A program made the translations under genes and the position numbers. Shown piece by piece: positions 24,936 through 28,936 of a DNA stretch of 64,000 bases (positions within the stretch are counted from its first letter, which is position 1; every line of letters starts with the position of its first letter). This stretch comes from Legionella drozanskii LLAP-1. GTDB lineage: Bacteria > Pseudomonadota > Gammaproteobacteria > Legionellales > Legionellaceae. Below the pieces are notes generated by a model. That model had not been told where the DNA came from and ran no database searches. It saw nothing but the letters and a program-made list of their open reading frames with translations. The DNA lies in the NCBI RefSeq assembly GCF_001467585.1, contig NZ_LNXY01000031.1:78669-142668 (forward strand), given 5' to 3'.

Positions 24936-25682
24936 TCAATGATTACTAAGGTTTTTTTTTAGAATATCGTTTAACTTTATAATTAATTCAGTCTTATTCT
25001 GGCAATGCAATTTCGTTTTAAGATTTTCGATGTAATGCTCTACCGTTCGATAAGATAAATTAATTTGTTTGGCTATCTCTTTAGCCGTTTGCCCCCGAAC
25101 TAAAAGTTGCGCGCACTGCCATTGTCGAGGAGTCAGATTTAAATTATTTGAAAAATACGCACTCTCCTCACCGCCTAATAAACCAATTCTAATCAGCGTA
25201 GAGAGAGTTTCGGCCAGTGGATTTTCTCCTAATACAATTGAACAACCGAATAAACCTATCAGTTTATTTTCTGCATTAAACCAAGGACATTTAAGGGAAA
25301 GAGTCCGCAAAATCCCATCCTGTTCAGCACAAATTTCTTCGTCAAAAATTTTGCGCTTAGCGAATTCCATGACTTCTTTATCATTAACGCGAATAGCGTC
25401 GCTGGTTTTTGCTAAACGCAGCCCAAAATACTTTTGGCCAATTGCCTGCGTTGGAGAATCAAATCCACAGAAGTCTGCATTGCGTTCATTCAATTGATAA
25501 ATGACCCCTTCCGTATTTTCAAAATAAACACTACAGCGCCATTGCAATACTTCGCCAACGGTATGCCGGGTATCGAAATCAAACGATTCCTTTCTATAAG
25601 GGTTTGAACTGCTCAATTTGATACCCTGATTAAATCGGTAAATAGATAACTCTTTACTAACATCCAATTTTACTGCGCTCAT
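24936..25682 (-). CDS. LuxR-family regulator with PAS-like sensor domain
   Basis: 248 residues. The C-terminus (about 178-245) is a LuxR/GerE helix-turn-helix: LTPRQWQCAQLLVRGQTAKEIAKQINLSYRTVEHYIENLKTKL. The N-terminal part (about 50-160) reads as a PAS-like sensor (VYFENTEGVIYQLNERNADFCGFDS...IGLFGCSIVLGENP) rather than an acyl-homoserine lactone domain. Its start faces the peptide gene at 25833 across a 150-base divergent region, which makes it the natural candidate regulator of that locus (inference). Binding site unknown. The Shine-Dalgarno sequence is weak. Confidence 0.85.
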   Translation of the reverse strand: MSAVKLDVSKELSIYRFNQGIKLSSSNPYRKESFDFDTRHTVGEVLQWRCSVYFENTEGVIYQLNERNADFCGFDSPTQAIGQKYFGLRLAKTSDAIRVNDKEVMEFAKRKIFDEEICAEQDGILRTLSLKCPWFNAENKLIGLFGCSIVLGENPLAETLSTLIRIGLLGGEESAYFSNNLNLTPRQWQCAQLLVRGQTAKEIAKQINLSYRTVEHYIENLKTKLHCQNKTELIIKLNDILKKNLSNH

Positions 25683-25695
25683 TGTTTAATTAGTC

Positions 25696-25777
25696 AGCTA
25701 TGATTTCTGGATAGTATTTTATCATATTAGCTCCACAGTGCTGAGAGCCCGCAAGATCTGCAAAATTGTATTATAAT
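25696..25777. promoter_or_regulatory. Divergent control region: inverted repeat and TATAAT before the peptide gene
   Basis: The LuxR-type gene and the peptide gene share a 150-base region. It holds an imperfect inverted repeat (AGCTATGAT at 25696-25704 against ATCATATTAGCT at 25721-25732), a possible regulator site, and TATAAT at 25772-25777 on the + strand, about 55 bases before the peptide ATG. No clear -35 is seen, which would fit an activator-dependent promoter. Inference only. Confidence 0.35.
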
Positions 25778-25995: not shown

Positions 25996-27030
25996 ATGGA
26001 TAACTATTTAGTTGAACCTAATCCTAATCAAACTGGTGCAGTAATCCTGCATCAGCTCTTTCGGGAGAAGCTCAAGAATAGTTTTATTGTTTTAATTCAA
26101 GAATGTGCCCGTGTTTTTCATCAATCTTTTCAACAGCAACTCGATTTTATAAATAATTTAATTGTCGCAAAAAAATTTTCATCACATATTTACTCTAACT
26201 ATTATTCCTTATTGGCATTTATGGTCAAAAACGAGCGGCAAAGTTGCAAGAAATTATGTGAAGATTTATGTGCGCTCTTATCGAGAGAAGAGCTTTATGT
26301 GTCAGGGATTAATATTATTAATTTTCAAAATAGAGAATGGGAAATAAACTTTCTGAATGACATTTTAAACCAAGGGAATCAAGGGGTTTACAATTGTATT
26401 AGCGATGGTAATTTTGAGTTAAATAAATCTCATCTTTCTCAAGCATTAGAGCAGATCAAATTATCATCTAATGATATGTATTATGAAATTATGGACCATC
26501 TGAATTTAATAGAGTTGGTGGAGGGAGTTTTCCATATTTATTCGGGATCTAGTGTGAAATATTTAGGTGCATTACCCGTTGCACTACCACCTCAATCCAT
26601 TAATCCAATTTATTACTATTTTGATGTTATTATCCATGAAGGATCTCATCAACATCTCAATATTTTAATGGGTTTGGATCCCATTGTCTTAAATAAAGCA
26701 GATCAAACATTTATTTCACCTGCGCGAAAAGTCCCACGGCCAATGAAGGGTATTTTTCATGCTCATTTTGTATTTTATCGGCTGATACTCATGTACAAAA
26801 TGGCTTATAATTATTTTGATACTAGAGACAACAAAACTGAGCAAGAAAACAATCATCTTGATGACAGGCGAATTAAAGAATTACCCTGGGATTTCAATCT
26901 TCGCCTTTCTGCCTATCAACATAAATTTAAAGAAGGTGAAATTATTATTCGAGAGCATGCGCAGCTTACTGAAGCGGGATGGGAATTGTTTAATAACATG
27001 TCAAGAAATTTTAAAACTCAATTGGAATGA
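25996..27030 (+). CDS. HExxH-motif protein resembling RiPP peptide beta-hydroxylases
   Basis: 344 residues, no signal peptide. A metal-site motif H214-E215-G-S-H218 in VIIHEGSHQHL is followed by FISPARKVPRPMKGIFHAHFVF (S241-P242, R244, R248-P249, G252, H255). HExxH then a SPxRxxxRPxxGxxH block is what I recall for the aKG-HExxH-type peptide hydroxylase family (TIGR04267-like), in which the HExxH binds iron for oxidation rather than zinc for proteolysis. A metalloprotease acting on the peptide cannot be excluded. It sits between the peptide gene and a methyltransferase with which it shares ATGA. Its own Shine-Dalgarno is weak, suggesting coupling to the upstream peptide gene. The gene is AT-rich. 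Confidence 0.7.
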   Translation: MDNYLVEPNPNQTGAVILHQLFREKLKNSFIVLIQECARVFHQSFQQQLDFINNLIVAKKFSSHIYSNYYSLLAFMVKNERQSCKKLCEDLCALLSREELYVSGINIINFQNREWEINFLNDILNQGNQGVYNCISDGNFELNKSHLSQALEQIKLSSNDMYYEIMDHLNLIELVEGVFHIYSGSSVKYLGALPVALPPQSINPIYYYFDVIIHEGSHQHLNILMGLDPIVLNKADQTFISPARKVPRPMKGIFHAHFVFYRLILMYKMAYNYFDTRDNKTEQENNHLDDRRIKELPWDFNLRLSAYQHKFKEGEIIIREHAQLTEAGWELFNNMSRNFKTQLE

Positions 27031-27731
27031 AATTTAAAATGAATATAAATCAACAAGAAAGAGCAATCATTCAGACCCTTCGTCAATTTTCTCCCCAACC
27101 TAGTTCCTTATTAGATGTAGGATGTGGTGAAGGAGCTGTCATCAAATACTGTCAAAAAAACTTAAAAATCGAGGTAATGGGAATTGATCAACATGAAGAA
27201 ACCGTTGAGCAATTAATAACTAATGGAGTTAAGGCCAAGGTGGGTGATGCCAGGGTACTTCCTTTCTCGGATGAGCAATTTGAATGGGTTATTATTGCAA
27301 ATGTATTACATCATATTCCCAATGCCAATAAAGCATTAAATGAATGTCTCAGAGTCGCCCAATTTGGCGTGATAGCGAGTGAGCTCTGGTATGACAGAAG
27401 CATTAAATTGCAGCAATACGGCCATGAAATAGATACCTGGTGTAAAACACTCCATCAAGCGCTGGGTTTCTATCATCGAAGATACCTTAATTCCGGAGAA
27501 ATTATTGCTTTAATCCACAAAATAAATGTCGCATCCATCGACGTTCATTATGGCTTAAATTTAATTGAAACAACTATCGATTATTGGCTAAACGACCAAC
27601 AAGATTATCTTGAACAACTGCCGAAAAATCATGTTTTGCTCTGGGAGTTAGAAAATTTAAAAGCAAAACTTAAAAATAAGCCTTTATGTGAGCCCGGTTG
27701 GTTGCAAGTTATCCTAAAAAAAGCAACTTAG
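27027..27731 (+). CDS. Class I SAM-dependent methyltransferase
   Basis: 234 residues. Rossmann methyltransferase core: motif I LLDVGCGEGAVI (about 25-36), acidic post-I GIDQHEE, and motif IV VIIANVLHHIPNANKAL. The C-terminal part (about 130-234) carries a family-specific helical extension. The ATG overlaps the stop of the HExxH gene by four bases (ATGA), so the two are translationally coupled and probably act on the same substrate. It could methylate the adjacent peptide (inference). Convergent 4-base overlap with the MFS gene. Confidence 0.85.
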   Translation: MKFKMNINQQERAIIQTLRQFSPQPSSLLDVGCGEGAVIKYCQKNLKIEVMGIDQHEETVEQLITNGVKAKVGDARVLPFSDEQFEWVIIANVLHHIPNANKALNECLRVAQFGVIASELWYDRSIKLQQYGHEIDTWCKTLHQALGFYHRRYLNSGEIIALIHKINVASIDVHYGLNLIETTIDYWLNDQQDYLEQLPKNHVLLWELENLKAKLKNKPLCEPGWLQVILKKAT

Positions 27732-28936
27732 CCCCACCCTGTTTGCTTATCCATTGGTTTTTTTTTATAAAAATAGCTTAATAACAATAATTGCATCAAA
27801 GTAATTACCCAGGCGAAAAAAATTGGCGATTCTTCAGGAATTGAAGCAACAATATAGACCGTAATAAAATTAGAAATAATATTTAAAGTTGCAAATAAGG
27901 AGGCAGCAACAAGTGCATTTTCTTTGATATTTTCATAGGAATAGGCCGTTAAATTAGGATACAAAATGGCTAAGCCAAAAGTAACAATAGCAAAAGGCAC
28001 TACAATACCCGAGACAGAATATGGCGTTAAGTAACTACAAATTAAAAATAAAGCCATTCCAATCGAACTGATTATTAAACCAATTTTTACTACAAAATTT
28101 ATATTGTATTTTTTTATCAAACCACTGTTACAAAACGCCCCTAAGCTGAACATAAATCCAATAAATGCTGCAAGCCAACCAAAAAAAGTTGCCGAAATTG
28201 CCAGATGATTTTGTAATAAAAAAGGACTTGCCACATTGTAGCTAACAATAATATTGACTATCAAAATTGAATAAACAGTTTGAGAAAAAAAATGTTTGTC
28301 CCTCAAGTATTCTTTAAGATGACTAATATAGGATTTTTGCAGCTCTGCGCCGCTTTTATTTTTGATTTTAGGGAAAAATAAAAAAGTTGCTATCATTAGT
28401 CCAAAAGAAATGACCAATAAAATAAGAAAATTACCTTTCCAACCATAAATATCTTGGACATATCCGCCAATAAACGGAGCGACAATTGGCACTAATGCCA
28501 AGGCAGACAATAAAAAAGAAAAGACTCTTATCGACGCTTTTTTCTCATATTGTTCCCTGATAATGACCATAATTATAAACACCGACCCTAAAGAGCAACC
28601 TACACCTTGAAGAACCCTTAAAATCAAAAAAATTGATATATTATCAATGAGAAAAATTAAGGCCGTAGCTAGGATAAAAATGAGATTATTGATCAGTAAT
28701 AATTGTCGATAACTGATTTTTTTAATGAAATATCCCGAAAAAATAATTGCTAATCCCATACCTAACATAAAATAGGAATAGGTTAATTGAATGTGAGAAT
28801 TATTAGTATGCATTGCAATTTTCATTGCCGGCATCGAGGCAAGGTACAAATAAATTGATAATTGTGTTAATAACGCATTCATTACAAACGTCAAAAAAAC
28901 AATCCAATTAGATGGAGTCTTAAAGCGAGTCCGCAT
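27728..28936 (-). CDS. MFS efflux transporter (Bcr/CflA-like)
   Basis: 402 residues with twelve predicted membrane helices. The Bcr/CflA drug-resistance type is suggested by YLYLASMPAMKIAM near the start, the loop GYFIKKISYRQLLL after helix 2, and RVLQGVGCSLGSVFI. The ATG at 28936 is chosen because AGAGGAAA precedes it on the - strand; the frame is open further upstream. It overlaps the 3' end of the binding-protein gene by 17 bases, so both are one transcript. Facing the peptide-modification genes tail to tail, it could export their product, or it may just serve the binding protein. Confidence 0.85.
   Translation of the reverse strand: MRTRFKTPSNWIVFLTFVMNALLTQLSIYLYLASMPAMKIAMHTNNSHIQLTYSYFMLGMGLAIIFSGYFIKKISYRQLLLINNLIFILATALIFLIDNISIFLILRVLQGVGCSLGSVFIIMVIIREQYEKKASIRVFSFLLSALALVPIVAPFIGGYVQDIYGWKGNFLILLVISFGLMIATFLFFPKIKNKSGAELQKSYISHLKEYLRDKHFFSQTVYSILIVNIIVSYNVASPFLLQNHLAISATFFGWLAAFIGFMFSLGAFCNSGLIKKYNINFVVKIGLIISSIGMALFLICSYLTPYSVSGIVVPFAIVTFGLAILYPNLTAYSYENIKENALVAASLFATLNIISNFITVYIVASIPEESPIFFAWVITLMQLLLLSYFYKKKPMDKQTGWG

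What the first reader, a model, noticed from the sequence alone, without database searches (positions are those of the whole stretch)
24936..28936. Candidate new RiPP locus: 46-residue peptide + HExxH hydroxylase-like enzyme + methyltransferase, with regulator and exporter
Seen: a short gene with a perfect AGGAG ribosome site (25833-25973) is followed 22 bases later by a gene with H214-E-G-S-H218 and a SPARKVPRPMKG block, then a SAM methyltransferase coupled by ATGA. A PAS-LuxR regulator diverges from the peptide gene, and an MFS pump converges on the methyltransferase. Known: proteins with HExxH plus a SPxR/RPxxG block are described as iron/2-oxoglutarate peptide beta-hydroxylases in RiPP clusters. 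Inference: the peptide's C-terminal part (G35-A46, with D37 as a possible hydroxylation site) is modified, methylated and exported. The combination with this small Gln/Glu-rich leader in Legionellales is not one I know.
Basis: partly seen in the sequence, partly recalled or inferred. Interest (0 to 1): 0.9.

Follow-up and report, generated by a model that had tools for sequence, protein, structure and literature searches.

The report
Small peptide-modification gene cluster in Legionella
A short peptide gene, an iron-dependent oxygenase of a recently recognised peptide-modifying family and a methyltransferase stay together in several bacteria, so this Legionella locus very probably makes a small modified peptide of a type that I did not find described.

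Summary
A 46-codon gene precedes a protein scoring 59.2 bits against TIGR04267 (aKG-HExxH peptide beta-hydroxylase, cut-off 40), then a methyltransferase and a convergent MFS gene. In 4 of 143 Legionellaceae genomes these four genes are neighbours; L. nautarum has two tandem peptides. A fifth genome, of another gammaproteobacterial family, has peptide, enzyme and methyltransferase but no MFS seen. The peptide gene is under purifying selection. Six peptides share F-x-[IVL]-P-x3-V-x-DG-x-D-x-[IV]-x-TVQ plus three variable residues; their N-terminal halves differ. It is very probably a RiPP locus.

Corrections: the LuxR gene more likely pairs with queF; no PAS domain was found; the Gln/Glu-rich leader is not a family trait; the MFS-type pump suggests a product shorter than G35-A46. 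Which residue is oxidised (D34, D37, Q43, or the bond after Q43) and what is methylated stay open; both structure models failed. New variant of a known kind.

The parts
25833..25973 (+). precursor peptide gene, 46 aa; conserved segment F25-Q43, variable last three residues A44-P45-A46
   Evidence: relatives aligned; dN/dS
25821..25825 (+). AGGAG ribosome-binding site of the peptide gene
   Evidence: read
25996..27030 (+). aKG-HExxH peptide oxygenase, 344 aa (H214, E215, H218; R248-P249-x-x-G252)
   Evidence: TIGR04267 59.2 bits, cut-off 40; profile of 14 relatives hits ChlH, PDB 8s5f, E 2.9e-12
27027..27731 (+). class I SAM methyltransferase, 234 aa, translationally coupled by ATGA
   Evidence: Methyltransf_11 64.3 bits; relatives in 4 of 143 family genomes at E <= 1e-15 and in G810
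27728..28936 (-). MFS exporter, 402 aa (Bcr/CflA-like)
   Evidence: MFS_1 123.7 bits; TIGR00710 173.1 bits, below its cut-off 200.9; best matches in the cluster genomes
24936..25682 (-). LuxR-type regulator; probably not part of the cluster
   Evidence: GerE 60 bits, no PAS hit; pairs with queF elsewhere
25769..25805 (+). 37-nt block with a TATAAT, identical upstream of the peptide gene in L. nautarum; likely promoter region (inference)
   Evidence: the consensus promoter scan found no excess over shuffles (18 found, 17.6 expected)

Best explanation
A RiPP locus. The 46-residue precursor is bound and modified through its conserved C-terminal segment (F-x-I-P-x3-V-x-DG-x-D-x-I-x-TVQ). The iron/2-oxoglutarate HExxH enzyme oxidises a side chain in or near that segment, most likely a beta-hydroxylation of D34, D37 or Q43. 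The methyltransferase then methylates the oxidised residue, an Asp side chain or the C-terminal carboxylate. A housekeeping protease releases a short product, which the MFS pump exports. Shown here: gene order, family membership of the enzyme, co-occurrence, and selection on the peptide. Inferred: the chemistry, the site, the order of steps, the cleavage and the export.
For: TIGR04267 over cut-off in the window enzyme, in G124 and G126 and in G810. HExxH and R248-P249-G252 invariant in the 14 of 18 family places that I aligned. The profile aligns HExxH and the SPxR/RPxxG block to ChlH, a characterised Asp/His beta-hydroxylase (PMC12636437, sections read). Peptide + enzyme + methyltransferase adjacent in 5 of 5 genomes that hold this enzyme subfamily, in four different gene surroundings (window and L. 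nautarum share one). MFS beside them in 4 of 5. Purifying selection: 22 C-terminal codons of G124 against G126 show 9 synonymous and 0 non-synonymous codon changes, the N-terminal part 7 and 8; Fisher p 0.009. Tandem peptide copies in L. nautarum. Known substrates of the family are given as His, Asp, Phe, Gln and Pro (PMC13060819, passages); D34, D37, Q43, F25 and P28 are the conserved candidates.
Against: No product, transcript or activity is known to me. None of the seven genes from queF to the ABC binding protein that I scanned is a peptidase, so the release step is unexplained. Unlike many RiPPs the C-terminal segment is conserved and the N-terminal part is not. The methyltransferase could act on something else. 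Both structure models are too poor to use (pLDDT 38.3 and 44.0), so the fold was not tested. G810 has no MFS in the 16 kb read.
Confidence: 0.6

Rival explanations
1. Oxidative cleavage of the PflC/PosC kind: the HExxH enzyme attacks the alpha carbon of residue 44 and cuts after Q43, giving a peptide ending in an amide and releasing the last three residues, one of the two pieces being the product.
For: In PosA the enzyme hydroxylates Gln residues and cuts before Ala of a C-terminal ARMD; Ala or Gly at that place favours cutting (PMC12636437, sections 11 and 13). Here a conserved T-V-Q is followed by Ala in 4 of 6 peptides and by exactly three residues in 6 of 6. The variable tripeptide behind a fixed segment looks like a separate unit.
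Against: The residue after Q43 is Thr in L. nautarum copy 2 and Tyr in G810; larger residues gave beta-hydroxylation without cutting in PosA. The MNIO-nitroreductase partner of the pfl cluster was not among the genes scanned here.
Confidence: 0.2
2. The enzyme is an ordinary metalloprotease that hydrolyses the peptide.
For: HExxH is the classic zincin motif; PflC shows hydrolysis when the leader is missing (PMC12636437 abstract and section 13).
Against: TIGR04267 over cut-off, the SPxR/RPxxG block, and no Pfam match over its cut-off for the protein (only a sub-threshold RIH hit).
Confidence: 0.06
3. One reading: residues G35-A46 form the core, which is hydroxylated at D37, methylated and exported whole.
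For: G35, D37 and TVQ are conserved; Asp is a known substrate of the family.
Against: D34, directly before the proposed core, is equally invariant; the pump is of a small-molecule type (the size argument is recalled knowledge).
Confidence: 0.08
4. Only peptide and HExxH enzyme form a unit; methyltransferase and MFS belong to another small-molecule pathway.
For: A second Legionellaceae family pairs a peptide with a TIGR04267 enzyme in 7 of 7 loci, and I saw no methyltransferase beside it (ORFs judged by reading). In the window the MFS gene is on the opposite strand.
Against: Methyltransferase homologues at E <= 1e-15 occur in exactly the same 4 of 143 genomes, always next to the enzyme, and again in G810. 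In G124 and G126 the MFS gene is co-directional and directly downstream.
Confidence: 0.04

Closest known systems
ChlH / ChlB (Chlorogloeopsis; aKG-HExxH beta-hydroxylase fused to or partnered with a radical SAM cyclophane synthase)
   Same: Same enzyme family by TIGR04267 and by profile match to PDB 8s5f; peptide substrate encoded in the cluster.
   Different: No radical SAM domain in the 344-residue protein or among the genes scanned; different precursor; methyltransferase and MFS present. The original paper (Morishita 2024) was seen only as a citation.
PflC / PosC clusters of Pseudomonas
   Same: HExxH enzyme next to a precursor with conserved C-terminal Gln and a short tail.
   Different: No MNIO-nitroreductase or GNAT; precursor of 46 residues without the long nitrile-hydratase-like leader; one conserved Gln instead of a run.
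Nitrilobacillin (pes) and biphenomycin (bip/bpm) clusters
   Same: HExxH hydroxylase as a tailoring enzyme (passages).
   Different: No MNIO, asparagine-synthetase-like, arginase or B12-radical-SAM partner among the genes scanned.
LahSB, C-terminal carboxylate methyltransferase of a lanthipeptide cluster
   Same: Best PDB profile match of the methyltransferase family (6uak, E 3.9e-11); acts on RiPP C-termini (PMC11285071, passages).
   Different: Match covers only the SAM-binding part (24-117); unrelated enzymes such as a D-glucose O-methyltransferase score nearly as well (6e-10), so function cannot be carried over.

Membership tests
aKG-HExxH peptide beta-hydroxylase (TIGR04267) | score over the curated cut-off | tested here: met
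   59.2 bits, cut-off 40; G124 54.6, G126 50.1, G810 63.5
aKG-HExxH peptide beta-hydroxylase (TIGR04267) | HExxH plus RPxxG block | tested here: met
   invariant in 14 of 14 aligned; 4 of 18 places were not aligned, and one of these (G023) lacks the Gly
aKG-HExxH peptide beta-hydroxylase (TIGR04267) | ChlH-like fold | tested here: inconclusive
   sequence profile reaches 8s5f; own model unusable, no fold search was run
aKG-HExxH peptide beta-hydroxylase (TIGR04267) | iron- and 2-oxoglutarate-dependent beta-hydroxylation | not testable with these tools
   needs experiment
RiPP biosynthetic gene cluster | translated, conserved precursor beside its modifying enzyme | tested here: met
RiPP biosynthetic gene cluster | leader removal / protease | tested here: inconclusive
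   no peptidase among the seven genes scanned; some known RiPP clusters lack one too
PflC/PosC-type oxidative cleavage | Gln-Ala at the cleavage site | tested here: inconclusive
   Q-A in 4 of 6 peptides, Q-T and Q-Y in the others
radical-SAM-fused HExxH (Chl type) | radical SAM domain | tested here: not met
   no such Pfam or NCBIfam hit in the 344-residue protein
LahSB-type C-terminal carboxyl methyltransferase | full-length similarity and activity | tested here: inconclusive
   best PDB hit, but only over the cofactor-binding part

The most novel reading that the evidence does not exclude
The precursor is a carrier whose fixed DGxDxIxTVQ segment docks the enzymes and whose last three residues (APA, TAA, YLM) are the real cargo. 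The HExxH oxygenase modifies or cuts at the Q43 junction and the methyltransferase caps an end, so that a di- or tripeptide-sized oxidised and methylated molecule is exported. In G810 a DdaF-like ATP-grasp ligase and an AlaDh/PNT-like enzyme would extend or change it. This would be a RiPP route to very small peptides using a HExxH enzyme in place of the better known maturation machineries.
Probability: 0.2. Interest if true: 0.75.

Novelty: new variant of a known kind. Interest (0 to 1): 0.5.

Why it matters
HExxH oxygenases are a recently recognised class of RiPP enzymes whose reactions 'at present cannot be predicted' (PMC13060819, passage). This locus gives a compact, stand-alone peptide + HExxH + methyltransferase unit with a sharply conserved substrate segment, seen in two genera of Legionellaceae and one other family. 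It would make the enzyme's target and the meaning of the fixed TVQ + three residues directly testable. RiPPs of Legionella are little described in what I searched (MNIO-made bufferins are mentioned in PMC12452194, passages).

Tried and rejected
Structure: AlphaFold2 of enzyme and methyltransferase with two sequences each gave mean pLDDT 38.3 and 44.0; not used, no fold search run.

Viral contigs: 79 pattern stretches, none a relative. Plasmids: 3 of 72,556 records for the window enzyme, distant, from Xenorhabdus and Pantoea; none for the window peptide or for the G810 methyltransferase and enzyme. Genome contigs: 137 stretches matched a pattern, 1 was a relative, L. nautarum; the two patterns used were narrow.

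RNA folding upstream of the peptide gene: z -0.21, nothing. Promoter and terminator scans: no excess over shuffles. PAS domain: not found. Regulator as part of the cluster: rejected for the reasons given. PCMT-type isoaspartate chemistry at the conserved D34-G35 was considered; the methyltransferase has no PCMT hit in the tables seen, so it is only a possibility.

Not inspected: neighbourhoods of the weak class and phylum hits G176, G264, G281 and G715. The class and phylum searches are samples (369 and 398 genomes). The 'order' search covered the same 143 genomes as the family searches.
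Full report
WHAT IS THERE. The window lies in a Legionellaceae genome. Its nearest relative in the set, G014, matches the Legionella nautarum ATCC 49506 contig NZ_LNYO01000021.1 in contig length (91,571) and hit identity. NCBIfam puts the 344-residue protein in TIGR04267, 'aKG-HExxH-type peptide beta-hydroxylase', at 59.2 bits against a cut-off of 40. 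The third gene is a class I methyltransferase (Methyltransf_11, 64.3 bits). The MFS gene is Bcr/CflA-like but below that model's cut-off (173.1 against 200.9). The regulator has a LuxR helix-turn-helix and no PAS hit. Upstream of it lies a queF gene (TIGR03138, 357 bits, cut-off 293.45).

CO-OCCURRENCE. In 143 Legionellaceae genomes, window genome included, TIGR04267 is found in 17 (12 over cut-off), methyltransferase homologues at E <= 1e-15 in 4 and MFS homologues at E <= 1e-40 in 5. The four methyltransferase genomes are G000, G014, G124 and G126; the same four hold the close enzyme subfamily (600-615 bits; the next enzyme has 129) and the four best MFS matches. The fifth MFS match (G057, 28%) has no TIGR04267 hit. 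In all four the genes adjoin. In G124 and G126 peptide, enzyme, methyltransferase and MFS are co-directional; in the window and G014 the MFS gene converges. The neighbours beyond the cluster differ between window/G014, G124 and G126. Outside the family, 3 other genomes of a 369-genome class sample have only distant hits (best 57 bits). Of a 398-genome phylum sample, G810 has a full-length one (192.7 bits).

A FIFTH CASE. In G810 (same class, other family) the order is peptide, enzyme, methyltransferase, then an ATP-grasp protein related to dapdiamide synthase DdaF (232 bits, cut-off 840) and an AlaDh/PNT-like protein. I saw no MFS gene among the ORFs of the 16 kb read. A tree of 16 rows (15 enzymes; G126's occurs with two starts) groups the five triad enzymes (support 97/96), with G810 beside G124/G126 (88/86). 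The program warns of a long branch and odd composition for G810, so the exact place is unsure.

THE PEPTIDE IS REAL AND ITS END IS WHAT MATTERS. Six peptides align: M1, F25, P28, V32, D34, G35, D37, T41, V42 and Q43 are invariant; the last three residues are APA (4), TAA and YLM. N-terminal halves are unlike between lineages (8-9% identity in the N part, 45-59% in the C part, window/L. nautarum against G124/G126). Between G124 and G126 the last 22 codons carry 9 synonymous and 0 non-synonymous codon changes, the rest 7 and 8 (Fisher p 0.009). The strict motif occurred only at these six peptides in the 635 kb of partly redundant DNA held. By E-value alone the G124 and G126 peptides were not separable from chance hits.

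HOW IT MAY WORK. By family the enzyme should use iron and 2-oxoglutarate to oxidise the peptide. Described products are beta-hydroxylated His, Asp, Phe, Gln and Pro (PMC13060819, passages) and, in PflC/PosC, cutting before an Ala behind a Gln run (PMC12636437, sections 4, 6, 11 and 13). D34, D37 and Q43 are the best conserved candidates. Q43-A44 invites comparison with the PosA site, but Thr and Tyr follow Q43 in two of six peptides, where the PosC results would predict hydroxylation without cutting. The methyltransferase's best PDB match is LahSB, a C-terminal carboxyl methyltransferase (PMC11285071, passages), over the cofactor-binding part only; this is a hint, not an assignment. MFS pumps move small molecules (recalled; an E. 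coli MFS protein, YdeE, is noted as acting on dipeptides in PMC3429515, passage), which argues for a short product. No peptidase is among the genes scanned.

THE REGULATOR. Homologues of the LuxR gene are found in 55 of 143 genomes. In 5 of the 20 other genomes of the genus (G001, G004, G006, G012, G021) one lies 131-175 bases from a queF homologue, divergently, without the cluster (in G021 both frames hold stops). In the window it lies beside queF too. Its nearest G124 homologue is on another contig than the cluster. It may still influence the operon, because it diverges from it here, but it is not a conserved part.

PRINT. Searches listed no paper on this peptide or on a HExxH RiPP of Legionella; only the listed top papers were seen, and subscription journals are mostly missing. 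Papers were seen as stated: sections of PMC12636437; passages of PMC13060819, PMC12452194, PMC11285071, PMC12707348 and PMC3429515; others as listings only.

VERDICT. Very probably a genuine RiPP locus with a precursor family that I did not find described, in a known enzyme class: a new variant of a known kind.

Noticed in passing
L057:7733-7906(-), L049:6271-6453, L050:6118-6297, L053:7517-7696(-), L051:7306-7479(-), L052:5462-5632, L054:5935-6111: A second TIGR04267 family in Legionellaceae: in 7 of 7 loci (G002, G125, G130, G129, G128, G126, G111) a 57-61-residue peptide (conserved N-terminal part with FF..(I/L)P and PTM, variable C-terminal end) directly precedes the enzyme; it looks like a separate two-gene RiPP.
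   Followed up: partly
L058, L059, L060, L061: A third, divergent TIGR04267 group (G023, G024, G070, G022; below the family cut-off) with no shared small peptide gene that I could see; in three of the four a gene that reads like an aromatic amino-acid permease lies next to it.
   Followed up: no
window 24055-25682: queF (24055-24852) and the LuxR-type gene form a pair that recurs, divergently, in five other species of the genus; the window genome has two queF copies.
   Followed up: partly
L097:4591-7043(-): DdaF-like ATP-grasp ligase and AlaDh/PNT-like protein follow the methyltransferase in the G810 cluster; upstream a gene at 9683-10537 reads like an intramembrane CPBP protease (not scanned).
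   Followed up: partly
L101:5620-7731; L102:5722-8051; L100:5998-8588: HExxH peptide-modification genes with an MFS-type transporter gene close downstream on plasmids of Pantoea and Xenorhabdus (the MFS is annotated in L101 and L102; in L100 it is an unannotated 422-aa ORF very similar by eye), two of them typed conjugative.
   Followed up: no
L099:6297-6506(-): In G694 a 69-residue ORF with a repeated LGRLFSKRG segment lies just upstream of a TIGR04267-like enzyme and an 841-aa protein that reads like an adenylating enzyme; perhaps a multi-core precursor.
   Followed up: no
L048:9791-9986(-): The L. nautarum region between LuxR gene and peptide gene carries an extra stretch of about 40 bases with a TGACAG...CTGTCA palindrome that the window lacks (seen by eye).
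   Followed up: no
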